Assembly: GCF_003086295.3 (NCBI RefSeq)
Contig: NC_092052.1
Span: 71,030,910-71,094,909 of the forward strand
Direction: 5' to 3'
Source of the DNA: Arachis hypogaea
Lineage: Eukaryota > Streptophyta > Magnoliopsida > Fabales > Fabaceae
DNA: 64,000 bases
The position numbers and the translations under genes were made by a program. The stretch's first letter is position 1, and every line of letters starts with the position of its first letter. The notes under the pieces were generated by a model, which had not been told where the DNA came from, did no database searches, and saw nothing but the letters and a program-made list of their open reading frames with translations. This document shows positions 962-59,413 of the stretch, piece by piece.

Positions 962-996
962 TCCCCACACTTAAGTCTTTGCACCGTCCTCGGTGC
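962..996 (-). promoter_or_regulatory. E1 internal stem-loop plus purine motif cassette
   Basis: Read on the minus strand: stem GCACCG, loop AGGA, stem CGGTGC (996-981), 8 nt, then AAGTGTGGGGA (972-962). The purine motif matches the one next to the LTR in E4 and E5, but this copy lies just after the accessory ORF, far from any LTR. E4 and E5 have the same cassette in the same place with altered but still paired stems. Confidence 0.7.
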
Positions 997-1153
997 CATC
1001 TGTCAGGAACAGGGGTGGGCAAGTAGCAGTATCTCCACAGTCGGGACCATCATGGCTCCCTGTGCTGGTAAAGAAAGTGGAGTCCGGGGTGTCTGAGTCC
1101 TTGAATTTTCCCATAATCAGTTCCTTGAGGTATGTGAATCGGCGCTTGTTACG

Positions 1154-2224
1154 TCACTCTCTCATCTTAGCTTTGTGTTCCTGCCGATCCAACCTTTCGA
1201 GTATTTGATGGAGCAGTTGATCTGTGGTAGGTGCTTGTGGTACGGAAGGAGGAATGTCCTGAGCCGGTTCAGTGGGCTGGCTTGGAGTGGCTGCTGAGGG
1301 TCTGATATATTTCCCATTAAGGACATATTGATCATCCCGTGGAAGTATGGCTTTGGTGTCCCCAGCTCTAAAGGAGACTCTGGCTGCTGAGATGAGATCT
1401 GAGACCAAGGCGGGGAAAGGTAAGTTACCCACGATTTGTACGTGTCCCATGGCATTCCGGATGTGTCTTGGTAGGTTCAGAGGCTGGTCTGTAAGGATGC
1501 ACCATAGTATAACGGCCATGTCCGCAGTGAAGGAGGACTCATGAGTGCTCGGAAAGACGTAATGGGACATGATCTGTGCCCATACGTGAGCCTCCAGGGT
1601 AAGTGCTGATGCCGAAATTCCCTTAGTGCGGGTACGATGGTATCCGTAGATCCATCGGCTGCCAGGTAGTGCGATAACTCTGAGAACAGCGTCCCAGTCA
1701 AATTGGTACATCTGGCGCTTGAGTGCAGCTTCTTGAAAGGCGTCCAAACCTTTTGGAATAGGGGGAAGACATAGAGCTTTTTGAATGGCCTCTTCTGTAA
1801 TGGGGACTTGCTTCTGACGGACAAAGACAGACTGCAGGGTTGGGAGGTGGAAGTTGGAGTAGAACTCGACTACCCAAGAAAGATTGACCTACCTCGGCTG
1901 TGTCTGTAGGAAACCCCATTGTCTTTGTGTAATTTGCGGATCAACAAAGGTAGCAATATAGTTTGAGAGGAGAAGAAGGTATTCGTTGTTGTAGCTCCTT
2001 TCTGCCAGGATGGGGAACATCTGCTCACAGTAGCGATTGGAAAATCATGCAGTGTCCTTTGCTGGAAAGGCTTTTTATTTATCATCAAGCTTTATAATCC
2101 TCTTAAGTCTCTTTGTTGAGGGTTTAACCGCAGTTGAAGAGGGTTCTGCCACTAATGCTCTTTTTGTTCCTCTTCTTGCTGTTGATTTGGGAGTAGCTTT
2201 CTCTTTTTCTTTCTTGGTGGCCAT
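1154..2224 (-). pseudogene. E1 accessory ORF (putative plant transposon protein family), broken
   Basis: The reading starts at ATG 2224, with a Lys-rich N-terminus (MATKKEKEKATPKS) that looks like a nuclear-targeting or nucleic-acid-binding tail. It shifts frame at least once before the conserved middle (1747-1154). That part has FDWDAVLRVIALPG, WAQIMSHYVFPSTHES and LPRHI, which line up with FDWDAVKERIALDP, WHQILSNFIMPSTHET and LPRFI of the E4 copy. E2 carries a relative. I recall this as the family Pfam calls putative plant transposon protein; no biochemical role is known to me. It occupies the env-like position of Athila elements, but I see no membrane segment or signal peptide. Confidence 0.7.
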
Positions 2225-2250
2225 TCTGAAAAAGGGGAGAGAAAGTAAAT
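2225..2250 (-). promoter_or_regulatory. Putative splice acceptor before the E1 accessory ORF
   Basis: On the minus strand a pyrimidine tract (TTTCTCTCCCCTTTTT) followed by CAG ends one base before the ATG at 2224. E4 has the same layout. It would suit a spliced subgenomic RNA for the accessory ORF, as in env-bearing retroelements. Inferred from sequence only. Confidence 0.45.
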
Positions 2251-3010: not shown

Positions 3011-3011
3011 G

Positions 3012-3885: not shown

Positions 3886-5508
3886 CTATTCGGCCATCTC
3901 TATTCTGTATGGACTATCCCATCTTGATCTCAACTTTCCTGGCATGAGTATCAGTCGAGATTTGTAAAGGAGGACTAAGTCCCCAGGATGGAACTTTTTT
4001 CTCTTAATGTGCTGATCATGTACAACCTTCATCTTCTCCTTGTATAGTCTAGAGTTCTCATAAGCTTCTAGGCGAAGGCTTTCCAATTCTTGCAGTTGCA
4101 ATTTCCTTTCAGCTCCGGCTTCCTCAATTCCCATGTTGCACTCCTTTACTGGCCAAAAGGCTTTGTGCTCGACTTCAACAGGGAGATGACAAGCTTTTCC
4201 ATAGACTAAGTGGAAAGGACTCATCCCAATGGGTGTCTTGTATGCGGTTCTGTATGCCCAAAGTGCATCTTGTAGCCTGGTGCTCCAATCTCTTCTATGA
4301 GGTTTGGCTATCTTCTGCAAGATACGTTTTATCTCTCTGTTTGACACCTCGGCTTGCCCATTAGTCTGAGGATGGTATGCTATTGCAACCTTATGAATTA
4401 TTCCATGCTTCTTCATTAATCCTGTTAGTCTCCTGTTACAAAAATGGGTGCCTTGATCGCTCACGATTGCTCGTGGTGATCGAAAGCGACAAATAATGTG
4501 GTTTCTCACAAAGGAAACAATAGTGTTAGCATCATCAGTGCGGGTAGGAATTGCTTCCACCCATTTGGAAACATAATCCAAAGCTAACAATATATAAAAA
4601 TAACCATTAGAATTTGGAAATAGACCCATGAAGTCAATGCCCCAAACGTCAAAAATTTCATAGAAAAGAATAATTTGTTGAGGCATCTCATCCCTCCTGG
4701 ATATATTACCAAATTTTTGGCATGGGAAACAAGATCTACAAAATTCGGCAGCGTCTCTAAAAAGTGTAGGCCACCAGAATCCACAGTCTAAGATTTTTCT
4801 AGCTGTTCTTTGAGGGCCAAAATGTCCTCCACTCTCAGATGAGTGACAGACCTCTAAGATGGACTGGAATTCTGATTGAGGCACACACCGTCTAATTACC
4901 TGGTCAGCACCACATCTCCATAAATATGGGTCATCCCATATATAATATTTAGACTCGCTTTTCAGCTTGTCTCTTTGATGCTTAGAAAAGTTTGGAGGAA
5001 AGGTGCGGCTAACTAGATAATTAGCTACAGGTGCATACCAAGGGACTACCGCGGATACTGCTTGCAGGTTATCAAATGGGAAATTATCAGCTATAGGAGT
5101 GGGGTCATCTGAAATGTGCTCAAGGCGACTCAAGTGGTCTGCCACTAAATTTTGGTTACTACTCCTATCCTTTATTTCTAAATCAAATTCTTGTAATAGC
5201 AGTATCCAACGTATAAGCCTTGGTTTGGACTCCTTTTTAGCTAATAGATACTTTAGAGATGCATGGTCCGAGTACACTACTACCTTTGTACCAAGCAAAT
5301 ATGCTCGGAATTTATCCAGAGCAAAAACAATAGCAAGAAGCTCTTTCTCAGTAGTAGTGTAATTGGACTGTGCTGCATCTAGAGTTTTATACGTATAAGC
5401 AATAACAAAAGGGTCCTTACCTTCACGCTGAGCCAATGCTGCTCCTACTGCATGGTTGGAAGCATCGCACATTATTTCGAACGGCTGGCTCCAGTCCGGT
5501 CCTCTCAC
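3886..5508 (-). pseudogene. E1 RNase H and integrase part of pol
   Basis: 540 codons without a stop. RNase H comes first: MCDASN near residue 13, [12 protein letters not shown], then [10 protein letters not shown]. Next is the HHCC zinc-binding region ([11 protein letters not shown], then CRSCFPC). The integrase core shows the catalytic triad in [14 protein letters not shown] and [11 protein letters not shown], and it ends with the GKLRSRW motif before a TAG stop. Homologous sequence continues in frame after that stop to about 3742, so the tail was lost by a nonsense mutation. It lies in frame with the RT block, separated by the stop at 5578-5580; the true polyprotein start is far upstream, and the Met at 5508 is not a real start. 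Confidence 0.9.
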
Positions 5509-5577
5509 AATTGTAGCTTGAGTCAGGGCGGTCTTCAGCTTAGCAAATGCTTGTTTGCAATCTTCACTGAACTCGAA

Positions 5578-6366
5578 CTATATATCCTTCTGCAGTAGTC
5601 TGGATAAGGGAAGTGTTACCTTACTAAAGTCCTTAATGAATCTCCTGTAAAAACATGCATGGCCAAGGAACGAGCGGACTTCCCTCACAGAAGAGGGGTA
5701 AGGTAAACTAGAAATAACATCCACCTTTGCTGGGTCTACAGAAATGCCAGTATTAGACACAACATGTCCTAGTACAATCCCTTGTTTAACCATAAAGTGA
5801 CATTTTTCAAAATTTAATACAAGGTTTGTACTGACACATCTATCTAATACTCTAGATAATCCATCTAAGCAAAGGCTAAAGGAATCGCCATAAACACTAA
5901 AATCATCCATAAAAACTTCCATACAGTCCTCAATAAAATCAGAGAAAAGACTCATCATGCACCTTTGGAAGGTAGCTGGTGCATTGCACAAGCCAAATGG
6001 CATTCTCTTGTAAGCATAAGTCCCAAAATGGCATGTAAAAGTAGTCTTCTCCTGATCCTCAGGAGCTATATGAATCTGGAAATAACATGTGTAACCATCT
6101 AAAAAACAATAATGTGATTTACCTGACAGGCTATCCAGCATTTGATCAATCAATGGAAGAGGATAGTGATCCTTACGGGTTGCTTGGTTGAGGCGTCTGT
6201 AGTCAATGCAGACCCTCCAAGCGTTCTGTACTCTGGTTGCTATGAGCTCTCCATGCTCATTCTTCACTGTAGTGACTCCAGACTTCTTTGGTACTACTTG
6301 TACTGGGCTTACCCATTCACTGTCTGAGATGGGATAGATGATATCTGCTTCCAGTAGTCTGGTCAC
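5578..6366 (-). pseudogene. E1 reverse transcriptase part of pol
   Basis: Contains the Ty3/Gypsy RT core: WRVCIDYRRLN, the GYTCYFQI block, FGLCNAPATFQR, the catalytic FMDDFSVYG (YxDD-type aspartates intact), VLGHVVS and FLGHACFYRRFI. RT sequence also extends upstream in the same frame to about 6650 and is cut there by at least two stops (TAG near 6593, TAA near 6442). A TAG at 5578-5580 separates it from RNase H. The catalytic residues survive, so the loss is by premature stops rather than active-site change. It would copy element RNA into cDNA in a virus-like particle. Confidence 0.9.
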
Positions 6367-6651
6367 TTCCTTTTTGATAACCTCTAAGATAGTGGGGTTC
6401 AGTCTTCTTTGGGGTTGACAAACGGGCCTTGCTCCCTCTTCTTAAAATATTCTGTGCTCACATACTTGAGGGTTGATGCCTACTATATCTGCCAAACTCC
6501 ACCCAATTGCCTTCTTGTGCTTCCTCAGCACACTAAGTAACTGCTCTTCTTGTTGAGAAGTGAGTTCCCTTGCAATGATAACTGGACACTATTGCTTGTC
6601 CTCAAGGTAAGCATATTTGAGGTGTGGAGGAAGGAGTTTCAAGTCTAACTT

Positions 6652-10527: not shown

Positions 10528-11263
10528 ATGACCGTTTCGCAAAGAGGATTCCGCTCTAGGTAGTCTTTCGAGTCTAGGGTGAATCTCGTTCTCTGTTTAT
10601 ATATATATACTGTGAGACCAGCCAACGTTTGCACCCCGTTTATATGCGCACTTTAGCCTAAATATTGTGTACAAGACTCCTCTTGTGTGGCTACTTGATG
10701 AGGTACCAGAGAGACGTCATATGGCAATGTCTGGTCGTGCAGAGGAGTAATAGATGATGTTCTACCTTTTGATGACATTCCACCTTACTTGAATTTTGAA
10801 GACTTAGAACGTACTTTCCCTTGCTTTAGAAGTTTAGAGGGACTAGGTGATTATAGAGTCTAGGCTAGCTTGGGCGCCAGCTTAGGAACTTTTTGAACAG
10901 ATCAGGGCCTGGGATGTTGTATGTTTTATATGTATATAGTTATTATATAGCTATATCTAGGGGTGTTCTAACTAAAAGTCTATACTCTAATAAATGATGG
11001 ATCACCGAATATTGTCAATTGCTTGTGATGTATTTATGTGTGGTTGTTTATAACTATTTTATCTACTATCAGTTGTGAATTGATTATGAATGATTCCGTC
11101 TATTAAACCCAAACATTTTAAAAAAAAAGTACCTCACAAAATAACTACGTTTTTAACAGCGAATCAGTCTCATATAATAAATAATAGATAATAATTAGGA
11201 AGACAAGTTGGTAACACTCAGTTTCCGGTATGATCTAGACATACTGAAAATTGGGTCGTTACA
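10528..11263 (+). repeat. Tekay-like LTR-a, 3' part only
   Basis: It starts abruptly at ATGACCGTTT where E1 entered; the same point in LTR-d is near 34068. A TATATATATA run at about 10597-10606 is a candidate TATA box. It ends GTCGTTACA just before the PBS. The rest of this LTR should lie left of E1, outside the window. Confidence 0.8.
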
Positions 11264-11714
11264 ATTTGGTATCAAAGCAGTTCGTTTCCAGTAGAGCATG
11301 GGGAATGGACTGACTATGCTTCATTGCATACTCTACTTGTGTGTCTCATGCTATTAGGGTATCTTCAAGATATATTTGGCATGAATGTCTATGAGCACTC
11401 ATTTTGGGAATGTTCGTGCTTAACTTGAGATATTAATATTGATCACCTTAATGTTGATTGTTTGGTGCGGATAAGACCTCAATGACTGTGAATAGGCATG
11501 GTTTAATCGAGCTCCGAATGATGAATCGACGTGAGCCACAACTATCTTCGTAGCTGTTATGATCTTCATGGCTATGGCTGTGTGAGATTTGGATGTTGTA
11601 AGGAATGAACCGATCTCTTTGTTAGGATGGCTTGAAGGAAATAGACCGCTCGAAGAAGGATTCTTGCACGCGGCTGAAATTTTGAGGGCAAAATTTTCTT
11701 TTAGGAGGGTAGAA
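11264..11714 (+). other. Tekay-like minimal internal region with PBS and PPT
   Basis: The PBS TGGTATCAAAGC (11267-11278) is one base off the tRNA-Met type, and the polypurine tract TTTTAGGAGGGTAGAA ends at 11714, right before LTR-b. The 451 bp between the LTRs has no gag-pol. A short plus-strand frame ending in FSFRRVE may be the very end of a lost pol, but this is weak. The same shortened region recurs at 30583-30980, so the deletion predates amplification or tandem duplication. Confidence 0.75.
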
Positions 11715-14700
11715 TGTAATAACCCTGATTTTCGAGTACGCAAGATCTTTTCTAAAGGCACGGATTTCTCCGGAAGATCAGTAAAAGGAACACCTCTTCT
11801 ATATCAACAAGTATCTTGATCCTCATTGTCATTATGTCATCTTTAAGCTAGAACCTCTTTTGAGGCAAGCTCGATAACGCAATCGCGAAGAACCTAGTTT
11901 TTGAGCCGTATTGGTTAGGAGTTTTGATTCTAGTTTTCGTAAATAGTCTCTGTTTGATGAACCGGACTCGATTCATGAGAGAAGAGAGATAATAGTATAA
12001 TATTATCATTATATTAGTATTAGAAGATGCTTGAATGATATTATAAGGTTACCTGGTCTGTTTTAGTTAAAAACAAGAAATCGGTTTCACCGGGTTCACA
12101 GTTTACTGGTGCAGCTTAGCACCAGCACTCTCTAATGACTTTAGCAATACTAAGGCCTCATCATACATTTTTTATTCTTATAATAAATATGTTACTAGTG
12201 TCATTTATGCTAGTAGCTCAGAAAATAATTTTTAGAGATGTTTTTACAAGTGTTCCGATACATCTAGTTTTAGTAGTTATACACCTGAGATATTTTAAAA
12301 TTATTTTAACCCACCTCCAAGCCAACCAATCACAACTCACCCTACACCCCCAAGACACTCCAAGGCTGGTCATTTACTCCCTTTGGCTGAAAATGAGAAG
12401 AGAGAAAAGAGAGAAACTTTCATGACACTTAAATCTTCAAAGCTTGATTTCTTCTGAACTAAAACTCAAATCAAAACTCCGATTTCACCAAAATGATCCT
12501 CTCTTCTTCCTCTACATAACCATGTAACTTATCACGGCTGGAAATAAGGTGAGATGGCTTTTTCTTTCCCCTTTGAATTTGGTTTTCAAGGAAACATGCA
12601 TGAACATGTGTTTTCTTGATGTTCTTCCTTAGGAATCATGCTTAACTTGACTTGAGGGCCAAAAAATGTTAATTTCCAGCAAGTATAAGGTGAGATATCC
12701 CTTCTTAACATGCTGAGAGAGATTTGGTCAGTTGAGAGTTTGTGGATTTAAAGTTGTTCTTGATGTGATTTAGGAGGAAAAAGTGCTTAAGGATTACCTG
12801 AAAGTATAACTGAATTTGGAGCAGCAAAACCAGGTAGGGTTTGATGAAATTAATCTTGATTAGTTGTGTTTGATATTTGTGATTATGATATGGTTTGGTT
12901 ATGCTTGAAATTGATTGCTTATATGAGTTATTCTTGGTGAAAGTTTGTTGAAATTTTGATGAAAATTGATGATATTCAACTTTGAATTTGTGTTCTTCAT
13001 GGCTGCTGGAAAAAGGAACCTTAACCTATAAATTGGGGTTCAATTTGTGATAAAATCAAGTAGAAAATATGGGGTTTTGGTGGTTGCTAATTTATTATGA
13101 ATTATGATAAAAATCGGTTGCTGAAAAGATTGAAAAACGGATAAAAACAGAGAAAGAATCTGAAGAATTTACGAAGAACACGAAGAACACTTTGAGTGTG
13201 ATGAACAACATTGAAGAACACCTTTTAGATCTTAAAAAGGGCAAGGTTGTAATTATTTTCGTGTTTGAGGGGTTATTTGGTAATTTCTGAAAGTTAGGGT
13301 GGTAAAAGTAGAAATATTAAAAGTTATGGGTGGTAAAAAGTGAATTTTAAAGGTTAAAGGTTAAAGTAAAGTTAATTTTCGAAAATTTAATAATAAAATA
13401 ATAAATAATAATAAAATATTAAATAATAATATTTAATTAAAAATAATATTTTAATAAAAATAATAAAATAATGTGAAAAAGGCAGTTTTTCGTAAAACTT
13501 TTAGAAAGACAACTTTAAGCGTAGAATTCCATAATTACCTTCATAAAATACCTAGGGAGTGGTAATAACATGATAGTGAGGCAAAGATAAAGGAAAGATA
13601 AGAAGTTAAAGAAAAGATTAAAACACAAAGAAAAGTCTGTAAAGTTTTAATGACAGAAAACAACATGGATTAGTGAACGACTAGGAGCAACATAGTAAGT
13701 TCTTGAGTTGCGCCTAGGGTTAGGTATAATATGAAAAGTTAAACTATTTCAGTATAGACTTAATGAATCTATACTTGGGACAGGTTAACTATTCATACCG
13801 AAATTTACGTAAGCTTTAAATACATACGTTAAGCAGAGAAAAGAATAACCATAGCAGAGTAAAGAGATATAGAGAACAGAGTAACCAGAGTAGAGTAAAG
13901 AGATCAAGAGAAAAGAGTAATCAGATCAGAGTAGAAAGATAAAGAGAAAAGAGGAATCTGATAAAGAGAAATGGTTTGAGTTAAGATGTTATGAAAGTAA
14001 AAGCTGTAAAGTTTGTATAGTATGATTGAACAAAGAAAGAAAGAGGTACTGCAGAAGAATGTGAAAGTGATGATGAATAATGAGAATGATAATGAATGAT
14101 GATAATGAGAATGATTATGTAAGAATCTGCTGCAGAGAGGCAGTCAGATAGATGGTGGTACGACCACTAAGAGCGCTTCCCTGGGATACTTAGCTATAAT
14201 GCTATTCTGTAAGTCAGAGGACCCGTACAGAGGTATCGAGAAAACACAACTAGCATATACTCCTGTAAGTCAAAGGACTCTTAGAGTGAGAGTGTGTGTG
14301 TGCTCCTGTAAGTCAAAAGACTCTTACAGTGAGTGTGTTGGGCAGATATGAGTTAACTAGCTCCGCCATGCAAGTCAAAGGACTCTTGTAGTGGGTTGCT
14401 AGTGCCACCCTGCAAGTCAAAGGACTCTTGCAGTGGTTTGCCTCACAAGTCAAAGGACTCTTGAGAGGGGCATTGCCAACAGGGAAGCTTTACCTGGTCA
14501 GAGGACTCCGGGTAACGTCGAGAGCGGGTATGTAACCGACAAATGAGCTCATTACCTGCACTAGGGCTAGACATGCATCATACTTGGTTGCGTATTTCCT
14601 CTGTTATGATTGTTGTTTAAATGTATGCTTTCTTTGTTTTCATTCTATTCTCTGAGTCGGTGTTTTATTTTCTTGTATTCTTTTATTTGTGTTTTGCTTT

Positions 14701-15633
14701 CTATTTTCTCTATTTTCTCTATTTATCTGTTTCTTCTATTTACTGCTTTTCGATATTCTACTATTTATCTGCTAAACAACACGGAATTAACGAACTTAAC
14801 TAATAACCCCGGCCCTACTAAGAACTCCCCAATTCTTATCCCTTCTCTCTCCCTTCCCCCTTCAGATGGAAGCAGGAGTACCCTTCCATATTATACTGAT
14901 GACTGTTTGGCAAAGAGGATTCTGCTCTAGGTAGTCTTCTGAGTCTAGGGTGAATCTCGTTCTCTGTTTATATCTATATACTGTGAGACCAGCCAACGTT
15001 TGCACCTCATTTGTATGCGCACTTTAGCCTAAATCCTGTGTACGAGACTCCTGTTGTGTGGCTACTTGATGAGGTACCAGAGAGACATCATATGGCAATG
15101 TCTGGTCGTGCAGAGGAGTAATAGATGATGTTTTACCTTTTGATGACATTCCACCTGACTTGAATTTTGATGACTTAGAACGTACTTTCCCTCGCTTTAG
15201 TAGTTTAGAGAGACTAGGTGATTATAGAGTCTAGGCTAGCTTGGGCGCCAGCTTAGGGACTTCTTGAACAGGTCTGGGCCTAGGATGTTGTATGTATATA
15301 TATGTATATAGTTATTATCTAGCTATATCTAGGGATGTTCTAACTAAAAGTCTGTACTCTAATAAAGGATGGATCACCGAATATTGTCAACTGCTTGTGA
15401 TGTATTTATGTGTGGTTGTTTATAACTATTTCATCTACTATCAGTTGTGAATTGATTATGAATGATTCCGTCTATTAACCCAAACGTTTAAAAAAAAAGT
15501 ACCTCGCAAAATAACTACGTTTTTAACAGCAAATCAGGCTCATGTAATAAATAATAGATAATAATTGAGAAGACAAGTTGGTAACACTCAGTTTTCGGTA
15601 TGATCTAGACATACTAAAAATTGGGTCGTTACA
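11715..15633 (+). repeat. Tekay-like LTR-b (3919 bp)
   Basis: Complete from TGTAATAACCCTG to GTCGTTACA. A hairpin array lies at 14207-14520 and a TATA-like run near 14967-14979. The ORFs inside (for example 12135-12425) reappear only because the LTR is repeated and resemble nothing I know. Confidence 0.85.
14207..14520 (+). repeat. Hairpin array in LTR-b (loop TCAAAGGACT)
   Basis: Six ~24-bp hairpins plus one degenerate one. The stem CTGTAAG/CTTACAG switches to CTGCAAG/CTTGCAG at 14410-14433, a paired change, while the loop TCAAAGGACT stays nearly constant. Spacing is irregular (about 33-60 bp). The same array is in LTR-d. Confidence 0.8.
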
Positions 15634-15691
15634 ATTTGGTATCAGAGCAGTTCGTTCCCAGTAGAGCCTGTGGAGTGGACTGACGATGCTT
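15634..15691 (+). other. 58-bp remnant internal region between LTR-b and LTR-c
   Basis: Only the PBS TGGTATCAGAGC (15637-15648) and about 40 further bases remain before the next LTR. Compared with 11264-11714, everything after GATGCTT up to the PPT is gone. Confidence 0.8.
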
Positions 15692-18600
15692 TGTAATAAC
15701 CCTGATTTTTGAGTACATGAGATCTTTTCTGAAAGTACGGATTTCTCCGGAAGATCAGTAAAGAGAACACCTCTTCTATATCAACAAGTATCTCGATACT
15801 CATTGTCATTATGTCATTCTTAAGCTAGAACCTTTTCTGAGGCAAGCTCGATAACGTAATCATGAAGAACCTAGTTTTTGAACCGTACCGGTTAGGAGTT
15901 TTAATTCTGATTTTCGTAAGTAGTCTCAGTTTGACAAACCGGACTCGATTCGTGAGTGGAGAGAGATAATAGTATAATATTATCATTATATTAGTATTAT
16001 AAAATGCTTGAATGATATTATAAGGTTACCTGGTCTGTTTTAGTTAAAAATAGAAAATCGGTTTAACCGGGTTTACGGGTTTACTGGTGCAGCTTAGCAC
16101 CAGCACTCTCTGATGACTTTAGCAATGCTAAGGCCTCATCATACATGTTTTATTCTCATAATAAATATGTTACTAGTGTCATTTATGCTAGTAGCTCAGA
16201 AAATAATTTTTAGAGATGTTTTTACAAGTGTTCCGATACATCTAGTTTTAGTAGTTATACACCTGAGATATTTTAATATTATTTTAATCCACCTCCAAGC
16301 CAACCAATCACAACTCACCTTACACCCCCAAGACCTCCAAGGTTGTCTCATTTCATCATTTTGGCCGAAAATAACAAGAGAGAAAAGAGAGAAACTTTCA
16401 TGAACACTTAATCTTCAAAGCTTGATTTCTTCTGAACTAAAACTCAAATCAAAACTCCGATTTCACCAAAATGATCCTCTCTTCTTCCTTTACATAACCA
16501 TATAACATATCAAGGCAAGAAATAAGGTGAGATGGCTGTCTCCCTCCCTCTTCAATTCGGTTTTCAAGGAAAACCATGCAAAACATGTGTTTTCTTGATG
16601 TTCTTCCTTAGGAATCATGCTTAACATGACTTGAGGGCCAAGAAACGTTAATTTCCAGCAAGTCTAAGGTGAGATATCTCTTTCTAACATGCTGAGGGAG
16701 ATTTGGTCAGTTGAGAGTTTGTGGATTTAAAGTTGTTCTTGATGTGTTTTAGGAGGAAAAAGTGCTTTAAGAACACTTCAAAGAGTAACCGGATTTGGAG
16801 TAGCAAATCAAGGTAGGGTGTCACAAAATTAATATTGATTATTTGTGTTTGAGTTGTGTGAATGTTGTATGACTTGGCTGTGCTAAAAATTGGTTGCATA
16901 TATGATTGATTCTTGGTGAAAATTTGGTGAAAATTTGATGAAATTTGATGAAATTCAGGCTTTAAAGTTCATGTTCTTGGAGCAGCTGGTAAACGAAACC
17001 CTAGGCCCTAAATTGGGGTTCAATTTGTTTTAAAATTATGTAGAAAAGATGGGGTTTTAGTGGCTGCTAATTTATTATGAATTATAGTAAAAATCGGTTG
17101 TTGAAAAGACTGAAAAACGGGTAAAAACAGAGAAAGAATCTGAAGAATTTATGAAGAACATGAAGAACACTTTTAGTGTGGTGAAGAATAATGAAGGACA
17201 CCTTTTTGATTCATAAAAGGGCAAGGAAATAATTAATTTGGTGTTTGGGGGGTTATTTTGTTATTTCTGAAAATTAGGGTGGTTAAAGTAGAAATATTAA
17301 AAGTTACCGGGGTAAAAAGTGAATTTTAAAGGTTAAAAGGTAAAGGCAAGGTAATTTTCGAAAATTTAATGATAAAATAATAAATAATAATAAAATATTA
17401 AATAATAATATTTAATTAAAAATAATATTTTAATAAAAATAATAAAATAATGCGGAAAAGGCAGTTTTCTGTAAAAGCTTTAGAAAAACAACTTTAAGTA
17501 CAGAATCTCATAATTACCTTCATAAAACACTTAGGAAGTGGTAATAACATGTTAGTGAGGCAAAGATAAATGAAAGATAAGAAGTTAAAGAAAAGATAAA
17601 AATCAAAGAAAAAGTCTGTAAGGTTTTAATGACAAAAAAAACAGACAGAGACTAGTGAACGAACTAGAGCAACTTAGTTAGTACTTGGGTTGCGACTAGG
17701 ATTAGGTATAATATGAAAAGTTAAACTGTTTCAGTATAGACTTAATGAACCTATACTTGGGACAGACTAACTATTCATACCGAAATTTACATAAGCTTTA
17801 AATACACATGTTAAGCAGAGAAATCAGAGCAGAGTAGAGAAACACAGAGAACAGAGTAACCAGAGAAAAGTAAAGAGATACAGAAAAAAGAGTAACCAGA
17901 GTAGAATAAAGGGATACAGAGAAAAGAGTAATCTGATAAAGAGAAATGGTTTGAGTTAAGATGTTGTAAAAGTAAAAGCTATAAAGTTTGTATAGTATAA
18001 TTGAACAGAGAAAGAAAGAAGTACTGCATAAGAATGTGAAAGTGATGATGAATAATGAGAATGATAATGAATGATTATAATGAGAAAAGAGTAATATAAC
18101 AAAGAGAATAGAGGAGAAGAGTATAAGAATAAAGAGTTAAGCCTTGTGGCATGATGTTCTGTTGTATGTTCATCTGCTGCTTTTCCATTGGCCCTAGAGG
18201 TCCTGTAGGCCCAAGTTCACCTACAATGAGTTGTAATTCCTGTAGGCCGAAGTTCACCTGCAGTGAATATCAATTGTGTATCTCAGGGTGTTGCTCCTGT
18301 AGGCCGAAGTTCACCTACAGAGAGTTGTAATACCTGTAAGCCGAAGTTCACTTACAGGGGCGCCATTTCTGTAAGCTGAAGTTCACTTACAGAGGTACTA
18401 TTTCTGTAGGCCAAAGTTCACCTACAGAAAATTGTTGTGCTGTAATTAGACTATTTCTGTAAGCCGAAGTTCACTTACAGAGGTGTTATTTCTGTAGGCG
18501 AAGTTTACCTACAGAAAGTTGTTGTATTGTGATTAGACTATTCTTGTAAGCCGAAGTTCACTTATGGGAGTGCTGTTTCTGTAGGCCAAAGTTCACCTAC

Positions 18601-20822: not shown

Positions 20823-20840
20823 TGGCGCCGTTGCCGGGGA
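20823..20840 (+). promoter_or_regulatory. E2 primer binding site, tRNA-Asp
   Basis: TGGCGCCGTTGCCGGGGA, fully matching the expected tRNA-Asp 3' complement, six bases after the LTR end. Confidence 0.92.
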
Positions 20841-25860: not shown

Positions 25861-25895
25861 TTGCTCGAGGGCGAGCAATATTCTAAGTTTGGTGT
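25861..25895 (+). promoter_or_regulatory. E2 internal stem-loop plus purine motif cassette
   Basis: Stem TTGCTCG, loop AGGG, stem CGAGCAA (25861-25878), 6 nt, then AAGTTTGGTGT (25885-25895). It is 39 bp before the accessory ORF ATG. It parallels the cassette at the 3' LTR (28174-28209) with a different but paired stem. Confidence 0.7.
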
Positions 25896-25933: not shown

Positions 25934-27081
25934 ATGGCACCTAAGACCGGAGAATCCTCCAGAAAAGGGAAAGGGAAGACAAAAACTTCCACCTCCGAGT
26001 CATGGGAGATGGAAAGATTCATCTCCAAAGCTCATCAAGACCACTTCTATGATGTTGTGTCCAAGAAGAAGGTGGTCCCCGAGGCCCCTTTCAAACTCAA
26101 AAGAAATGAGTATCCGGAGATCCGACATGAAATTCAAAGAAGAGGTTGGGAAGTTCTAACAAATCCCATCCAACAAGTCGGCATCCTAATGGTTCAAGAG
26201 TTCTATGCCAATGCATGGATCACCAAGAACCATGATCAAAGTAAGAACCCGGATCCAAAGAACTATGTTACAATGGTTCGGGGGAAATACTTGGATTTTA
26301 GTCCGGAAAATGTGAGGTTGGCATTTAACTTGCCTATGATGCAAGGAGATGAACGCCCCTACACTAGAAGGGTCAACTTTAATCAAAGGTTGGACCAAGT
26401 CCTCATGGACATATGTGTGGAAGGAGCTCAATGGAAGATTGACTCCAAAGGCAAGCCGGTTCAACTAAGAAGATTGGACCTCAAGCCTGTGGCTAGAGGA
26501 TGGTTGGAGTTCATCCAACTCTCTATCATCCCCACTAGCAACCGATCTGAAGTTACTGTGGATCGGGCCATCATGATCCATAGCATCATGATTGGAGAAG
26601 AAGTAGAGGTTCATGAAGTCATCTCCCTTGAACTCTACAAATAGCCAAAAAGCCCTCTCCTGGGGTAAGGCTAGCTTTTCCTCATCTTATCTGCCATCTA
26701 TGTTACTCAGCTGGAGCTTCCATAGAAGGAGACATTCACATTGAGGAAGAGAAGCCCATCACTAAGAAAAAGATGGAGCAAGCAAGAGAGCCCATTCATG
26801 GAGCTCAAGAGGCGCAGGAAGCTCGTCACCATGAGATCCCGGAGATGCCTCATATGCATTTTCCTCCACAAAACTATTGGGAGCAAATCAATACCTCCCT
26901 AGGAGAATTAAGTTCCAACATGGGACAACTAAGGGTGGAACATCAAGAGCACTCTATCATCCTTCATGAAATAAGAGAAGATCAAAAAGCAATGAGGGAG
27001 GAGCAACAAAGACAAGGAAGAGACATAGAAGAGCTCAAGGACATCATTGGTTCCTCAAGAAGGAAACGCCACCATCACTAA
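25934..27081 (+). pseudogene. E2 accessory ORF (putative plant transposon protein family), one frameshift
   Basis: Start chosen at ATG 25934 (MAPKTGESSRKGKGK), giving a basic N-terminus as in E1 and E4. The conserved part has RRGWEVLTNP, VQEFYANAW and an L-P-rich middle; this matches the E4 layout (QRGWFFLERN, VREFYFNYF). Frame one stops at 26642-26644. One missing base in ACAAATAGCC explains it, because the next frame is open through 26641-26772 and continues to the stop at 27081 with a C-terminal coiled-coil-like, Glu/Gln-rich tail and a basic end. Function unknown; it may bind nucleic acid or regulate the element. Confidence 0.75.
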
Positions 27082-28173: not shown

Positions 28174-28209
28174 GTTGCTTGGGGACAAGCAACAATTTAA
28201 GTTTGGTGT
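28174..28209 (+). promoter_or_regulatory. E2 terminal stem-loop plus PPT-like motif
   Basis: Stem GTTGCTTG, loop GGGA, stem CAAGCAAC (28174-28193, 8 bp), 5 nt, then AAGTTTGGTGT (28199-28209), two bases before the LTR. The position is that of the polypurine tract priming plus-strand DNA, though the motif is only partly purine. Confidence 0.75.
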
Positions 28210-41570: not shown

Positions 41571-41605
41571 ACACCAAACTTAAAGCTTGCTTGTCCCTAA
41601 GCAAG
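41571..41605 (-). promoter_or_regulatory. E3 terminal stem-loop plus PPT-like motif
   Basis: Minus strand: stem CTTGCTT, loop AGGGAC, stem AAGCAAG (41605-41586), 4 nt, then AAGTTTGGTGT (41581-41571), two bases before the LTR. The motif is the same as in E2. Confidence 0.72.
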
Positions 41606-45184: not shown

Positions 45185-45217
45185 TCCCCACACTTAAACA
45201 ATAGCATGTCCTTATGC
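45185..45217 (-). promoter_or_regulatory. E4 polypurine tract with stem-loop cassette (terminal)
   Basis: Minus strand: GCAT-AAGGAC-ATGC (45217-45204), 8 nt, AAGTGTGGGGA (45195-45185), then GGT and the LTR. This is the true PPT position. Confidence 0.75.
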
Positions 45218-46899
45218 TTAGTCCAAGATAAAGTGTAAGGTAAGGTTAAAGTGGTGGAATTTCATGCAATGCAATCTATCCTAAATGCAACTACCTAAAT
45301 GTATCATGCAATTCTAATTGTCATTTACTTGTATATAAAACTTACATGTAGTTAAATTAATTCACATTCTCAAGGAATCATATATGCATAGCCAACCTTA
45401 GATAATGTTAAAGCGCTTTTACAATTGAGATGGGTAAAATATTTTACAAACTTACAAGACAATTAACAATTTAAGCAGAGATATATGGTGATGAGCTATT
45501 GAACCCTCACTGGATTATGTGTTTACTCTCTGGTCACTCAGTGTTTATTGGGTTAATCACTATATTCTTCTTTTTATCCTTACTTTCTATAACTTTGTTC
45601 TTCATCTAACCAATCAACAATTATAGAATATAGGCATACAAAAATCATGAGGTCTTTTTTAAGGTTGTAATGGGGCCAAGGTGAAGGTAAGGGTATATGT
45701 ATAAGGCAAAGTGAGCTAATAAGTGAATCCTTGATTAGTCTAAGATCTCACCTAATATACACATTTTGCAATTCGAAGTTTCTTAACCTTTTTGCCCAAC
45801 TTTTCTCACTTTGTGTTGCAAGCTCATGCATTAACTTTAATTTTATCCTATGTGTATTTATCTTGCAATTGGGAATTTTTTTTTTTGTATCCCCTTAATT
45901 AAATACCGAAAATAAAAACTTTTTCTCTTTTTTTTTTTTTTGCACATGGTAATCCAATTGATTTCACATGAGCATGCTTCCCAAAATTTTTTATTTTATT
46001 CTTTTTAACTTTCTACCTTTGTTTCTATCATCCATGTTCCCATAAAGTTCCCCACACTTAAATTATACACAATACCTTATCTTAAGCTAACCAAGGATTC
46101 AACTTGGGATTTATTTGTTTTTCTGCTTAAGGCTAGTAATGTGGTTTATAGAACAAGAGGGGATTAAAAAGCTCAAGGGGGCTAACAAGGGTGATGTAAA
46201 AGGTAGGCTAATTTGGGATAAGTGAGCAAATAATTCAAGTAATGGCCTCAATCACTTTCTTGGTATGTATCTATATTCTATAATCAGACATATAGATTAA
46301 AACAAAGTAAAGAACATTAGAATAAAAAGAAGGGCGAAACACACAGGAATAAAATTTATGGTTTAAATGTAACCATACAATTAAGCTCAAAACTCACAGG
46401 CTGTGTGTTCTCTAGCTCAAAACTTATATATCAGTTACACATGTCATGTAAGTAAAAATCAAGAGTTCCCATTAATCTCAATGTAAAATTTTTGGGTGGC
46501 TTTAAAGTTTTAGTGTTCCTCCTTGATGAAATGTTGTTAACTAACTAACATGTAATGCTATATATACAAGGTGTGTGGATTGTTTTGGTTATGTTAAAGT
46601 CTCTAGTTTACTTCCTTTTTATTTTTCAATTTAAACCAAACTATCATATGCTAAAAGGGCAAACTATACTAATTAATCCACATATTCTATAACTACTAAG
46701 TTAGAATTGCAACTAAACTAAATGGCTAAAATATGAACTAAGGTGCAAAATGCAGAAATAACATAAAAAATAAAAAAGGACAATGTATAAGTACTGAAGG
46801 ATAAAAATAAAAATAAAGATAAAAATACAGAAAAATAACCAAAATAAGATAAAAGTGTCTGTAGTGGTTCACCAAAAAGATACGCCAGAGATGGCGACC
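45218..46899 (-). other. E4 3' untranslated region
   Basis: No credible ORF. Homologous to the E1 3' UTR. A further CCCCACACTT (minus AAGTGTGGGG) is at about 46050-46060. Confidence 0.65.
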
Positions 46900-46934
46900 T
46901 CCCCACACTTAAAATAAAGCATCGTCCTCGATGC
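46900..46934 (-). promoter_or_regulatory. E4 internal stem-loop plus purine motif cassette
   Basis: Minus strand: stem GCATCG, loop AGGA, stem CGATGC (46934-46919), 8 nt, AAGTGTGGGGA (46910-46900). Compared with E1 (GCACCG/CGGTGC) one base pair has changed on both sides. Confidence 0.72.
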
Positions 46935-47073: not shown

Positions 47074-48375
47074 CTATGTATCGGCAGCCTGAAGCTGCTG
47101 TGGCTCCTCCTGTTGTGGCGCAGCCTGCTGTGGTCCTGCCTGCTCCGCCTGGGCCTGTGTCTCCTCCTCATGAGCGCTCGCCTCTGCCTCAGATGTGTCA
47201 GAAGGGGTGTCAGGCTCGGAGGAGATGTCGCCATCGGATTGGATCATCAACTTGAGGTGCTCATAGCGTCTCTTGTTGCGACGCTCCATACGGTCCAATC
47301 GGGCGAAGAGGCGATGCACCAAATGATAAATAGGCTCAGGAGCAGGTGGGGGTGCAGTGGGTGGGGCAGGTGCAGCAGTGGAAGAAGAGGGGCTAGCTGA
47401 AGGTGTGGCTGTCTCATCAGAAGCAGTAAGGAATGAAGGTCTGTGGCCTAAAGCCAGAAAGTTGCTGTTGTGAGGAATGATCTTCTTGCAGTCCGCAGCA
47501 GGTGGCTTCTCATCAGCATCCTCCCAAGGCACGTCAGCTCGACGGCCTAGCTGGGTGACCAGATAAGGGAATGGGAGGGTGCCTCTGACATGTACCCTGG
47601 CCATATAGTGCCAGATGAATCGTGGCAGGTACAGGTCCTTACCCTCCATCACATACCAGAGGAGGGTGATCATAGCAGCAGGCAGCTTCGTCTCATGAGT
47701 GCTCGGCATAATAAAGTTACTCAGGATCTGGTGCCAGAGCCGAGCCTCATCATTCAAGTATATCCGCTTGATTCCTTTAGGCATGGTGGTGTTCTTACCC
47801 ATGACCCATGGGACAGTAGGGTCAAGGGCTATCCTCTCCTTGACAGCATCCCAGTCAAATCTCAGAAAACGCATGTCCTCTTCAGCCTTTTGGTAAACAT
47901 CAGGCTTATCTGACTTAGGCTGAAGGCGCAGAATATCCTCAATGGCCTCTTCAGTGACCAGTATTTGTTTCCCTCTGAGGTGCACTGCATCCAGGGAAGT
48001 CTTGAAATAATTGAAGTAGAATTCTCTTACCCAGGAAGCATTGACCTCAGTCAAATTCCTCTCCAAGAAGAACCAGCCTCTTTGTTTGATCTGATCGGAG
48101 GTGTACTGTTGTATTTCTTCTAGAATTTTCAGAGTCCTCTCCAGGTATAGATTTCTGGAGGTAGCAAACACCGAATACTTGAGCTCATAGTATCGGTTTG
48201 CAAACTTAATTGGATCATTGGCAGAGAGGATCTGGTCAGCCTTCTCCTACGGGGTGAAGTGCTTCTCCTGCCAGGATTAATCATGCATAAGCTCCAGGAG
48301 AGACATAGAGGATTCACCTGTTTTCTGTTTGCCAGTTTTTGCCTTTCCTTTTCCCTTTCTTTGAGGGTCAGACAT
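47074..48375 (-). pseudogene. E4 accessory ORF (putative plant transposon protein family), two early stops
   Basis: Start at ATG 48375 (MSDPQRKGKGKAKTGK), a basic N-terminus like E2. In-frame TAA at 48279 and TAG at 48249 break it; the remaining 365 codons are open. The conserved domain spans the central ~200 residues: QRGWFFLERN, VREFYFNYF, LRFDWDAV, WHQILSNFIMPSTHET, LPFPYLVTQLG. The C-terminus is Pro/Ala/Gln-rich with RRNKRRYEHLK. An in-frame stop ends it at 47074. It sits where E1 has its accessory ORF. Function unknown. Confidence 0.8.
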
Positions 48376-56055: not shown

Positions 56056-58297
56056 TGATGCACGGAAACTTGTCTCTCAACAAATTTCCCTCGGTAAGTA
56101 TACCGAATTGTCGTCAAGTAAAAACTCACAATAGAGTGAGGTCGAATCCCAGAGGGATTGATTGGTCAAGCAACTTTAATTAGAGGAATATTCTAGTTGA
56201 GCTAAGCAGAAATTGAGTTGAGAAATTACAGAAAGTTAAATGGCGGGAAAGTAAATAACAGAAAATGTAAATGCTGGAAATAAAGAGCAGAATGTAAATG
56301 GCGAAAAGTAAATTGGAGAATCTTAAATGGGGAATTGGGAAAATGAGCATAAAAGTAAATGGCAGAAAGTAAAGAGAATGGGTAAGATCAGAAATGGGGG
56401 ATTCATTGGGCTCAGGAGATGTTGTATTCTCCGGATCAAGTTCATTCTCATCTCTTCCTCAATCAATGCATTCATTGATCTCCTTGGCAATCTTAAGTGA
56501 TTGGATTCCAATTCCTTGGCAACCCAATCTCTCAAATCTTGATTAATAGCCAATTCCTTGGTCTAATTGCTCATGAGAAGAGATGAAGTATGGTCATTGA
56601 TTATACCACATGCATTCCTAAATCAAAGTGTTGGTAGGATTATATGTCACTATATCCATCCAAATCCCAATTTGGTCCAACATGAGAAAGCATTTCTAGC
56701 CTGATCTCTTCATTCCTATTCCAAGGTCCGAAGAGATCCAAGTATGAATAGCTTCTTTTCCAAGACAACTACCCAATTGGATGAAGATCGAAAGCCTTCT
56801 AGTAAAAACAAGAGAAAAGAAAGAAGAAGAATAATGAAAACTAGTATTAATCCATCAAATTACAACAGAGCTCCCTAACCCAATGAAAGGGGTTTAGTTG
56901 TTCATCGCTCTGGGAATGGAAAGCTTAAATGAAAAGTACATTCTGAAAAATAAAACTAAAAGTTGCAGAGAAAGTAAAATATACAGAGTGTAGTTCTCCA
57001 AAATGCTAAAAACTCCCTACTAGTTCAAAACTACTCCTATATATACTACTCTTCTGATCTTCTAGTTGGCTCTTCAAGTCTTGGATATGGGGCTTTGGAT
57101 CTTTAGTTGAAGTAGTTACAGTCTTCAGTGGGCTCATCTTTGCTTGCAGAAAAAGTGTGAGTTAGGCATGGACGTTAGTTAGGACGTTAGTGGTGTTAAC
57201 GTTAAGTGAAAATGTGGGTTCGAGAACGTTAGTGACGATCACCTTTTTCACTAACGTTCCAAGCCAAAAATGATCCATGTTAACTTCAACGTTAGTGGCA
57301 CTAACGTGACCACTAACGTTGCCTCTTGGTCCTTCGCAAACGTTATTGGCATTCATCTTTTCCAATAATGTTGCTTATTGCCCCTTTTCCCCACGTTAGA
57401 GTTCACGTTAGTATAACTAACGTGACCCTTAACGTGGGCATGCCTAAGCTTCGAGAGCGTTAGTGACACTTACATTTGTCACTAAAGCTTTAAACGCCTC
57501 TTCTTCCCATGTTAGTGCCTCACGTTAATTGCATTAACGTGACCACTAACGTGGTGGTGATTGCCATCTCCAACGTTAGTGACAAAGGTGAGTGTCACTA
57601 ACGTTGGCCCATAATTTCTTACCTCCACGTTAGCTTCCACGTTAATATAATTAACGTGGCAACTAACGTGGGCAATATTGGCTTAGTCCAACGTTAATGA
57701 CAAAGGTGAGTGTCACTAACGTTGGCGATTCCTTGCTCCTCCCACATTAGAGTTCACGTTAATGTAATTAACGTGACTCTTAACGTGGCCAATTGTGCAC
57801 TTTTGGAACGTTAGTGGTATTCACTTTTACTACTAACGTTGGAGCTTCCCTTTTCCTCCACGTTAGCTTCCACGTTAATGTAATTAACGTGGCCACTAAC
57901 GTGGGCTATAATGGCTTTCGAAGGCGTTATTGGTGATCACTCTTTCCATTAACGTTGCAAGCTAGCTCCCATTCCACGTTAGTGGTCACGTTAGTTAGAC
58001 TAACGTGGCTACTAACATGGCTACTAACGTGGCTCTTCCTTGCTTCCTTTGTCCTTAAATCAAGCAAATAAAGTGCATCAAAGCTTGGTTCTAGATCATG
58101 AGATCATGCATCATCTATTTTATCATTCAATTCATGCATAATTCTCATAAAATCATGTAAAGTTCACAATGTTTGCTTGAATCAAGATGTAAGTGAATAT
58201 CTACCCAAAACTTGCTTATTTACTAAGAAAATGCATGAAACTACCCTAAAACAGTAAAGAAAAGGTCAGTGAAACTGGCCAAAATGCCCTGGCATCA
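56056..58297 (-). repeat. E3 5' LTR (right)
   Basis: 2242 bp, TATA at 57038-57045, hairpin array 57167-58035. Small differences from the left LTR include an extra ACGTTAGTTAGG block near 57175 and an extra GTGGCTACTAACATG near 58010. Confidence 0.92.
57167..58035 (-). repeat. E3 LTR tandem hairpin array, second copy
   Basis: Same seven-period A/B hairpin array as 40460-41303. Some arms are better paired here (for example CACTAACGTTGCC where the left LTR has CACTAAAGTTGCC). Confidence 0.88.
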
Positions 58298-58302
58298 GAA
58301 TG

Positions 58303-59382
58303 CACTTATATGATTGAGGCCATTGTTTCAAATAGCTCACTTACCCAAATAGCCTTACCTTTTATCTTCCTTTGTTAGCCAACTTTGAGCCTATGCTAAA
58401 CCCAATTGTTCTTAATTTTAGCACATTACAAACCTTAAGTGAAAAATAATAAATGTCCCTTGTTTGGATCTTTGATTAGCTTAGGCTAGTAAGAGTGTCT
58501 ATCATTTAATTTTGGGAGAGTTGGGAACATTGGGTAGAGATAAAAGTGTATTTTTGTATCATTGTCAAAATTTTTGGGAATTTGGTAGATACTCATGTAT
58601 TAATCATGTTTAAACTATATGCATTGGTATCTTTGTATATAAGTCATCAAAAGAAAAAGAGAAAAAAAAGAAAAAAATGTATATATAAAAAGGAAAAAAT
58701 ATAGAAAAAGAAAAAGAAAGAAAAAGAAAAGAAATAAAAAGGGGACAAAACGCCCCAAAGTGAAGTTCAATAATAATCAATGCATATGGGTTGTAATTGA
58801 AGAGAATGCATGAGTGTGTGAAAAAAGTGAAGAATGGGTAGTTAGGTTTGTTTAGAATTGTATAGGTTGTTATATAGGTTAGGTGGGAAGTTTAAGTTAA
58901 TCAAAGATTCAAATCTCAAGCTCACTTGACCATATGCATCCTTACCTTGACCCTAGCCCCATTACAATCTATGGGAAAGACCTCATGATATTTGTATGCA
59001 TGCATGAAATAATTGTTGATTGTTAGATGAAAAACAAATCTTAGAAAGCATGATTAGGGGAGAATTGAGTGAATCAACCCTATACACTTGAGTGACTAGA
59101 GCGGATACACATCCGGTGAGGGTTCGATTGCTTAATTACATGTTTTCACCTATGATCATCTTTTCTTGCAAGCTCGAAAAATCTTTTCAATAACTCAATT
59201 CAATTGTGGGTTTACTTTGATTGCTATTGTTTTAGCCCTTGTGCTCATATATGTATTCTTGGGAATTGATTTATTTTGACCAAGCAATTGCATTCATTTA
59301 GATAGATTGCACGTAGGTAGTTGCATTTAGATAGTTCACATTGAATAAACGTTGATACCCTTTGTTTCGTTCTTGAGTTTAG
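58303..59382 (+). other. E5 3' UTR, second part
   Basis: It continues E5 after E3 and starts ATGATTGAGGCCATTG within a few bases, matching E1 and E4 3' UTR. Purine-rich low complexity near 58640-58740. No ORF to report. Confidence 0.7.
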
Positions 59383-59413
59383 CATGAGGACATGTGTGGT
59401 TTAAGTGTGGGGA
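59383..59413 (+). promoter_or_regulatory. E5 polypurine tract with stem-loop cassette (terminal)
   Basis: CATG-AGGA-CATG (59383-59394), 8 nt, AAGTGTGGGGA (59403-59413), four bases from the LTR start. Confidence 0.72.

What the first reader, a model, noticed from the sequence alone, without database searches (positions are those of the whole stretch)
962..59413. Stem-loop plus purine-motif cassette, duplicated within elements, with a fixed 8-nt gap
Seen: eight cassettes. With motif AAGTGTGGGGA and exactly 8 nt between stem and motif: E1 internal (996-962), E4 internal (46934-46900), E4 terminal (45217-45185), E5 internal (38916-38950), E5 terminal (59383-59413). With motif AAGTTTGGTGT and gaps of 4-6 nt: E2 internal (25861-25895), E2 terminal (28174-28209), E3 terminal (41605-41571). 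Loops are AGGA, GGGA, AGGG or slightly larger. Stems differ in sequence but stay paired: GCACCG/CGGTGC, GCATCG/CGATGC, GCACTG/CGGTGC, TTGCTCG/CGAGCAA, GTTGCTTG/CAAGCAAC. Known: the terminal copies sit where a PPT must be. Inferred: the stem-loop helps define the plus-strand primer or another step of replication, and the internal copy could be a second (central) PPT or a signal for the accessory-ORF RNA.
Basis: partly seen in the sequence, partly recalled or inferred. Interest (0 to 1): 0.88.

Follow-up and report, generated by a model that had tools for sequence, protein, structure and literature searches.

The report
Duplicated hairpin-guided second-strand start signal
Very abundant jumping elements in this plant genome carry a small hairpin a near-constant 12-14 letters before a short motif, often twice per element and once right at the 3' end repeat, and the set likely marks where copying of the second DNA strand would begin.

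Summary
All eight cassettes are at the stated places. In the 2.56-Gb source genome, TTAAGTGTGGGGA occurs 46,592 times against 78 for the reversed control. Of the first 99 usable places, all on one contig, 92 carry the hairpin, including 51 of 51 at LTR borders. The AAGTTTGGTGT type has it in 38 of 40 terminal and 23 of 27 internal copies sampled. Stems differ between families but stay paired beyond a tree-based null in class I (0 of 300 simulations), less strongly in class T (6 of 300); class F is undecided.

Corrections: the gap is 7 or 8 nt, not always 8. What both motif types share is loop-to-motif distance, 12-14 nt. Eight of 16 motif copies in the window have no hairpin. A pyrimidine-rich tract precedes it. 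Only E1 shows pol in this window; the other elements keep the cassette, as expected of a cis signal.

Best reading: a plus-strand priming cassette whose internal copy would be a second start. An extra PPT was already reported for Athila4 and Calypso (via PMC2829016); for the covarying upstream hairpin my searches found no report. No priming was measured, and no other plant genome could be searched.

The parts
962..996 (-). E1 internal cassette: stem GCACCG/CGGTGC, loop AGGA, spacer, motif AAGTGTGGGGA (972-962)
   Evidence: conserved with E4 and E5 in poorly alignable flanks
46900..46934 (-). E4 internal cassette: stem GCATCG/CGATGC (pair 3 T-A where E1 has C-G)
45185..45217 (-). E4 terminal cassette; LTR starts at 45181 (TGATAAACCC, read)
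   Evidence: one A.C mismatch next to the loop
38916..38950 (+). E5 internal cassette: stem GCACTG/CGGTGC with a T.G wobble
59383..59413 (+). E5 terminal cassette, 4 Watson-Crick pairs; LTR start at 59418 read by analogy with E4
25861..25895 (+). E2 internal cassette: stem TTGCTCG/CGAGCAA, loop AGGG, motif AAGTTTGGTGT (25885-25895); accessory ORF ATG at 25934
   Evidence: 24,744 genome copies of the motif context
28174..28209 (+). E2 terminal cassette: stem GTTGCTTG/CAAGCAAC, loop GGGA; LTR starts at 28212
   Evidence: 60,881 genome copies of the motif-LTR border
41571..41605 (-). E3 terminal cassette: CTTGCTT/AAGCAAG; LTR starts at 41568
46049..46059 (-). Third AAGTGTGGGGA copy of E4, without hairpin
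   Evidence: similar hairpin-less copies among the C1 sites
25934..26644 (+). E2 accessory ORF (PF20167 Transposase_32)
47074..48246 (-). E4 accessory ORF (PF20167), ends 139 nt before the internal cassette
1154..1888 (-). E1 accessory ORF (PF20167), ends 157 nt before the internal cassette
3886..6441 (-). E1 pol frames: RT, RNase H, integrase; the only pol found in the window
20823..20840 (+). E2 primer binding site TGGCGCCGTTGCCGGGGA (also E3 from 56049, E4 from 52222, E1 from 9056, minus strand)
   Evidence: tRNA-Asp type by comparison with PMC1142308 passages

Best explanation
The cassette is a pyrimidine-rich tract, a conserved hairpin with an RGGA-type loop, a T-ended spacer and an 11-nt motif, found at the 3' LTR border and, in elements where a partner copy was found, again mostly 1.4-2.3 kb upstream, and it likely acts in cis as the plus-strand priming signal of these Athila-like retrotransposons. 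Shown: position against the 3' LTR, duplication within elements, near-constant loop-to-motif distance, compensatory stem changes, retention in elements of this window that show no pol. Inferred: the folded RNA upstream would help the reverse transcriptase and its RNase H choose the motif as primer (by slowing the enzyme or by orienting it), which would matter because the motif is a poor polypurine tract (2 or 5 pyrimidines in 11); pol supplied by other elements would act on the cassettes of the pol-less ones; the internal copy would start a second plus-strand segment, like a central PPT.
For: Motif counts against reversed control: 46,592 vs 78; 60,881 vs 0; 24,744 vs 0. Hairpin at 92 of 99 C1 sites, 51 of 51 terminal; 38 of 40 and 23 of 27 for the other motif type. 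Anchoring on the loop without regard to pairing finds RGGR at 12-14 nt in 90 of 99, with pairs 2-6 Watson-Crick in 86-88 of 90 and pair 7 in 77 of 90, against shuffle means of 39-46. Loop-anchored alignment of 69 cassettes (chosen for pairing near the loop): 96.5% of cells paired, shuffles 62.0%, slid controls 14-44%, covariation score 0.870 vs 0.252. Tree null: class I 284 of 294 cells paired, null maximum 273, 0 of 300. LTR starts 2-4 nt after the motif. E1's terminal cassette was expected beyond the window edge and is there, 1449 nt from the internal one, stem AGCATG/CATGCT. Internal copies with a terminal partner: 24 of 25 and 24 of 41. Pyrimidines in the 25 nt before the stem: means 18.8, 17.3, 19.2 and 24.0 against 12.5. 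E2-E5 show no pol similarity to E1. Predicted pair probability 0.88 (90 of 99 sites anchored) and 0.91 (39 of 40) in context.
Against: No priming, cDNA end or RNA probing data. Single-sequence folds are unremarkable for four of eight. Class T exceeds the tree null only moderately (6 of 300) because its core hardly varies; class F (11 rows) is undecided, 86 of 300. In one search two of five measures do not beat the shuffles (pairs with a change on both sides 6 vs 6.0; further pair types 14 vs 14.7), and the AAGTTTGGTGT type gains little or nothing over shuffles because its letters barely vary; pairs 8 and 9 of the other type are not above chance there. In HIV-1, affinity or stalling is reported not to determine primer formation (PMC5766924, passages), and one SHAPE study, though it finds similar PPT structures in SIV and HIV-1, thinks RNA structure unlikely to modulate PPT use (PMC3616985, passages). 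Ty3 active sites are about 13 bp apart (PMC5371799, passages), while stem base to LTR is about 17-23 nt here (my count), so a simple stall ruler does not fit tightly. Motif copies without hairpin exist in the same elements. 17 of 41 class I-type sites had no exact terminal partner within 3 kb.
Confidence: 0.58

Rival explanations
1. The cassette is a packaging, dimerisation or nucleocapsid-binding hairpin of the genomic RNA (purine loop exposed on a short stem), and its nearness to the primer motif is secondary.
For: Loop RGGA/RGGG nearly constant while stem letters change; elements without pol keep it, as a trans-packaged RNA would.
Against: The 12-14 nt coupling to the motif in all classes and placement at the LTR border are not needed for packaging.
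Confidence: 0.15
2. The internal cassette is a splice acceptor or leader element for the accessory-ORF RNA; the pyrimidine tract and the AG in the loop are its acceptor.
For: In the AAGTTTGGTGT type the tract averages 24.0 of 25 pyrimidines, and an ATG opening 374 codons follows by 37 nt in 3 of the 7 fetched 2.5-kb stretches that hold the site (E2). Spliced env-like RNA is reported for barley Bagy2 (PMC7264820, passages).
Against: In E1 and E4 the cassette lies behind the accessory ORF, and no frame above 73 aa follows in E1 on that strand. The same cassette also ends at the LTR.
Confidence: 0.12
3. Shared descent only: an ancestral hairpin was copied with the primer motif and has no function.
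For: All sites are in one genome and related; shuffles ignore kinship; class F shows no excess over the tree null.
Against: Tree-based null exceeded in class I (0 of 300) and class T (6 of 300); hairpin and motif stay in register where flanks barely align.
Confidence: 0.06
4. The palindrome is a double-stranded DNA site for a host factor (transcription or chromatin).
For: GCATG...CATGC is a DNA palindrome as well.
Against: Stem letters differ between families while pairing holds, the loop is purine on one strand only, and orientation to the motif is the same in the sites sampled.
Confidence: 0.05

Closest known systems
Extra PPT in the linker of Athila4 (Arabidopsis) and Calypso (soybean), Wright and Voytas 2002 (not held; known here through PMC2829016 section 17)
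   Same: A second PPT copy between pol and the 3' LTR in Athila-type elements.
   Different: The sections I read mention no hairpin there; the primary paper was not read. Here the copy carries a covarying hairpin and pyrimidine tract, also in elements without pol and with a second motif type.
Sirevirus multiple PPTs with inverted repeat (PMC2829016, abstract, passages and sections 6, 8, 17)
   Same: Several PPT copies before the 3' LTR; an inverted repeat tied to the terminal PPT; role proposed in primer formation.
   Different: Ty1/copia; octamer AGGGGGAG; arms flank the PPT and reach into the LTR; upstream PPTs lack the repeat. Here the whole hairpin lies upstream and is present at the internal copy too.
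T-box/U-box upstream of PPTs (retroviruses, Ty1; TCTT in fission-yeast elements, PMC10085805 passages)
   Different: There it adjoins the PPT; here a hairpin stands between tract and motif, with a T-ended spacer next to the motif.
Central PPT of HIV-1/SIV and the coding-domain PPT of Ty1 (PMC3616985 passages; PMC2829016 section 17)
   Same: A second, internal plus-strand primer copy.
   Different: In the coding part there, in the linker here; internal priming not shown here.

Membership tests
3' polypurine tract of LTR elements | Lies immediately upstream of the 3' LTR | tested here: met
   Terminal motif ends 2-4 nt before the LTR in E2-E5
3' polypurine tract of LTR elements | Purine-rich run | tested here: inconclusive
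   AAGTGTGGGGA has 9 of 11 purines; AAGTTTGGTGT only 6 of 11 (letters), so the second motif is not polypurine
3' polypurine tract of LTR elements | RNase H-resistant RNA that primes plus strand | not testable with these tools
   needs cDNA end mapping or an enzyme assay
Central (second) PPT | Internal duplicate of the terminal primer signal | tested here: met
   E2, E4, E5 in the window, E1 with L173; 24 of 25 and 24 of 41 sampled internal sites paired
Central (second) PPT | Internal plus-strand initiation | not testable with these tools
   needs cDNA end mapping
Sirevirus PPT/inverted repeat module | Octamer AGGGGGAG and arms reaching into the LTR, absent from upstream PPTs | tested here: not met
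   Different motif, hairpin wholly upstream and also at internal copies
Athila clade (Ty3/gypsy) | RT-RNase H-integrase without additional RNase H (Tat has it, PMC6317226 passages) | tested here: met
   E1 frames: RVT_1; then overlapping RT_RNaseH matches, Integrase_H2C2 and rve; no further RNase H family at E 0.001
Athila clade (Ty3/gypsy) | PBS as in Calypso/Diaspora (tRNA-Asp) | tested here: met
   TGGCGCCGTTGCCGGGGA within 2 substitutions in E1-E4, none found for E5; tRNA assignment by comparison with PMC1142308 passages and recall, not aligned to a tRNA
Athila clade (Ty3/gypsy) | RT phylogeny | not tested
   No tree with named Athila references was built

The most novel reading that the evidence does not exclude
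These retrotransposons define their plus-strand primer by RNA structure rather than by a polypurine run: a hairpin held 12-14 nt upstream by its loop replaces purine content, so that even a motif with 5 pyrimidines in 11 works, at two sites per element, and as a shared cis code for pol-less elements served in trans.
Probability: 0.3. Interest if true: 0.8.

Novelty: new variant of a known kind. Interest (0 to 1): 0.6.

Why it matters
How reverse transcriptases pick one short RNA piece as plus-strand primer is still debated and, as far as I know, studied mostly in retroviruses and yeast elements. A covarying hairpin at a near-constant distance from a weak PPT, duplicated inside elements whose motif occurs tens of thousands of times, gives a natural test of whether RNA structure can specify the primer, and a sequence signature for the 3' ends of Athila-type elements and their pol-less relatives.

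Tried and rejected
Outer helix between the upstream pyrimidine tract and the motif: suggested by some folds, tested on 64 and 22 distinct sites, at chance (12.02 vs shuffled 12.37; 9.14 vs 9.24), rejected. Relatives outside the genome: the 32 IMG/VR pattern loci are mostly one repeated sequence without the stem; a protein search there confirmed none. Literal sequence search in papers: 132 papers, the 30 listed look unrelated by title. A permissive hairpin finder gave 98 of 99 with a stem of 5 or more but also 517 of 990 shuffles and 72 of 99 downstream stretches, so that count is not used. One search used a loop anchor that misplaced many class T rows; it is replaced, where 29 motif places without an RGGR loop at 12-14 nt were left out, as were sites with under 110 nt upstream, which removed most fetched AAGTTTGGTGT terminal copies (11 class F rows remain). 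In one search a few class F sites with a 12-nt distance were probably anchored one base off. For alignment A1 I gave 69 of 73 distinct 24-mers; the four left out were hairpin-less third copies, and the rows had been chosen for at least 4 pairs next to the loop, so leans towards pairing; the anchors do not use pairing. A genome-wide double-mutant count of stem letters (pattern GCACCGAGGACGGTGC) did not complete. Stall-ruler geometry was considered; distances fit only loosely.
Full report
What is there. The eight cassettes are at the stated coordinates. They belong to several LTR retrotransposons. E1 (minus strand, running off the left edge) has gag, RT, RNase H and integrase frames, a frame that matches E2's protease region, and an accessory ORF with PF20167; in the other four no pol similarity to E1's RT or RNase H-integrase frame was found by tblastn at E 1e-3. 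E2 has gag-protease and an accessory ORF; E3 has gag-protease pieces and is split by E4; E4 has an accessory ORF; E5 is split by E3. E1-E4 have a primer binding site TGGCGCCGTTGCCGGGGA within two substitutions; none was found for E5. The window lies in G000, 2.56 Gb in 440 contigs.

Terminal copies and LTRs. By comparing the two LTR copies, the 3' LTR starts at 28212 (E2) and 41568 (E3); 45181 (E4) is read by eye from both copies, and 59418 (E5) by analogy with E4. The motif ends 2-4 nt before it. From general knowledge of reverse transcription, a plus-strand primer must end there.

Abundance. TTAAGTGTGGGGA: 46,592 places, reversed control 78. The border TTTAAGTGTGGGGAGGTTGATAAACCC with up to 3 mismatches: 23,779, control 0. 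TAAGTTTGGTGTTGTGAT (terminal): 60,881, control 0. TAAGTTTGGTGTGGTAAAA (internal): 24,744, control 0. These counts say that the motif contexts are repeats, not that each copy has a hairpin.

Hairpin frequency. The listing gives the first 100 places, all on contig C1; 99 had enough flank. Hairpin with at least 5 of 6 pairs and a purine loop 12-14 nt from the motif: 92 of 99, that is 51 of 51 terminal and 41 of 48 others. Of the seven without it, I read four as hairpin-less third copies of the kind seen in E4 at 46059, two as damaged internal hairpins and one as unrelated sequence. For the second motif type, 38 of 40 terminal and 23 of 27 internal copies have it. Outside the window, E1's neighbourhood on C17 (L173) and these C1 places are all that was looked at for hairpins.

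Geometry. Terminal class T stems are GCATG/CATGC with outer A-T or T-A pairs; internal class I stems are GCACCG/CGGTGC, GCATCG/CGATGC or GCACGG/CCGTGC and wobble variants; the second motif type has GTTGCTTG/CAAGCAAC, CTTGCTTG/CAAGCAAG, TTTGCTCG/CGAGCAAA, TTTGCTTG/CAAGCAAA and relatives. Because the stems differ in length, the gap from stem to motif varies (7-8 and 3-6), but from loop to motif it is 12-14 nt in the sites with a hairpin. The loop is RGGA or RGGG in most (AAGA, AGAA occur), and in A1 the pair next to it is G-C in 60 and G-U in 9 of 69.

Covariation. Anchoring on the loop without regard to pairing, Watson-Crick pairs number 87, 87, 88, 86 and 88 of 90 at pairs 2-6 and 77 of 90 at pair 7, against shuffle means of 39-46; pair 1 hardly varies, and pairs 8 and 9 are not above chance. 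The second motif type hardly varies and so gains little over shuffles. In alignment A1 (69 distinct 24-mers, chosen for pairing near the loop), 96.5% of cells pair against 62.0% in shuffles and 14-44% when partners are slid, and the covariation score is 0.870 against 0.252; two of the five measures, pairs with a change on both sides (6 vs 6.0) and further pair types (14 vs 14.7), do not exceed shuffles. To allow for kinship, I built trees from flanking sequence and evolved the two columns of each pair independently. Class I (42 rows): 284 of 294 cells paired, null mean 229.2, maximum 273, 0 of 300. Class T (62 rows): 417 of 434, null mean 383.7, 6 of 300. Class F (11 rows): 76 of 77, null mean 74.4, 86 of 300, undecided. 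This is a home-made stand-in for R-scape, with rough rate fitting and small flanks for the trees.

Islands of conservation. Aligning E1, E4 and E5 around the internal cassette, hairpin and motif stand out from flanks that barely align, with C-G in E1 and T-A in E4 at pair 3; at the terminal cassettes hairpin core, motif and LTR start are likewise the best conserved stretch. If each element has a terminal copy, E1's should lie just outside the window. It does, 1449 nt beyond the internal copy, next to a TGATAAACC LTR start.

Pairing of copies. 24 of 25 internal copies of the second type on C1 have a terminal copy downstream on the same strand (22 at 1.4-2.3 kb, two at 3.8-3.9 kb). For the first type 24 of 41 hairpin-bearing sites not classed as terminal do, at 1.40-1.79 kb; the others may have partners with changed motifs, and a few of the 41 have terminal-type stems before unusual downstream sequence (seen).

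Pyrimidine tract. The 25 nt before the stem hold on average 18.8 (T, n 49), 17.3 (I, n 41), 19.2 (F terminal, n 39) and 24.0 (F internal, n 25) pyrimidines, against 12.5 in random window 25-mers. A T-rich box upstream of PPTs is known in retroviruses and Ty1 (PMC10085805, passages).

How it most likely works. Reverse transcriptase copies the RNA from the 3' side, so it meets the motif first, then the spacer, then the hairpin. I infer that the structure, with the pyrimidine-rich flank, slows or orients the enzyme so that RNase H spares and trims the motif as primer. The motif would need help because it has 2 (AAGTGTGGGGA) or 5 (AAGTTTGGTGT) pyrimidines in 11. The internal copy would prime a second plus-strand segment. 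That E2-E5, without detectable pol, keep the cassette fits a cis signal read by pol made elsewhere. None of these steps is measured. Against it stand the HIV-1 results on primer formation (PMC5766924, passages), the remark that RNA structure is unlikely to modulate PPT function (PMC3616985, passages), and the loose fit of the Ty3 active-site spacing of about 13 bp (PMC5371799, passages) with 17-23 nt from stem base to LTR.

What is known. An extra PPT in the linkers of Athila4 and Calypso is stated in PMC2829016 (section 17), citing Wright and Voytas 2002, which is not held. The same paper describes Sirevirus multiple PPTs with an inverted repeat at the terminal PPT only (sections 6 and 8). 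My searches for a hairpin upstream of the PPT in Athila-type elements (listings, plus passages or sections of eleven papers) found no such description; most subscription papers and all preprints are outside that library. A fair label is a new variant of a known kind.

Limits. No other plant genome was searchable, so conservation beyond this genome is untested; the E1 RNase H-integrase frame has protein relatives at about 60-66% identity in Trifolium, Cajanus, Malus and other eudicots (best 120 of 7,901 listed), where the test should be made.

Noticed in passing
24856-24899 (E2); L178, L179, L180, L181: The motif AAGTTTGGTGT also recurs, without hairpin, in a 33-nt tandem repeat at the 3' end of the gag-protease ORF, encoding NSKFGV in E2; the four fetched relatives show three units, some with one change.
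   Followed up: partly
42654, 42841, 42890 (E3, minus strand): Three hairpin-less AAGTTTGGTGT copies, two of them followed closely by an inverted ACACCAAA.
   Followed up: no
21383 and 21573 (E2): Two more hairpin-less AAGTTTGGTGT copies between the primer binding site and gag.
   Followed up: no
10528-19107 and 29925-34805: A unit of about 4 kb in three copies (about 86-96% identity over the aligned parts) on both sides of E2, apparently another repeated element interrupted by E2.
   Followed up: no
L045:1470-1550: One AAGTGTGGGGA cassette with stem TAGCACGG/CCGTGCTA runs straight into a TGATGAGCGGATA LTR-like start otherwise seen with the AAGTTTGGTGT type: either a hybrid element or an LTR inserted just there.
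   Followed up: no
whole genome G000: 71,409 first-look candidates for PF20167 (only 150 scored) in this genome, and no match in 14 control genomes.
   Followed up: no
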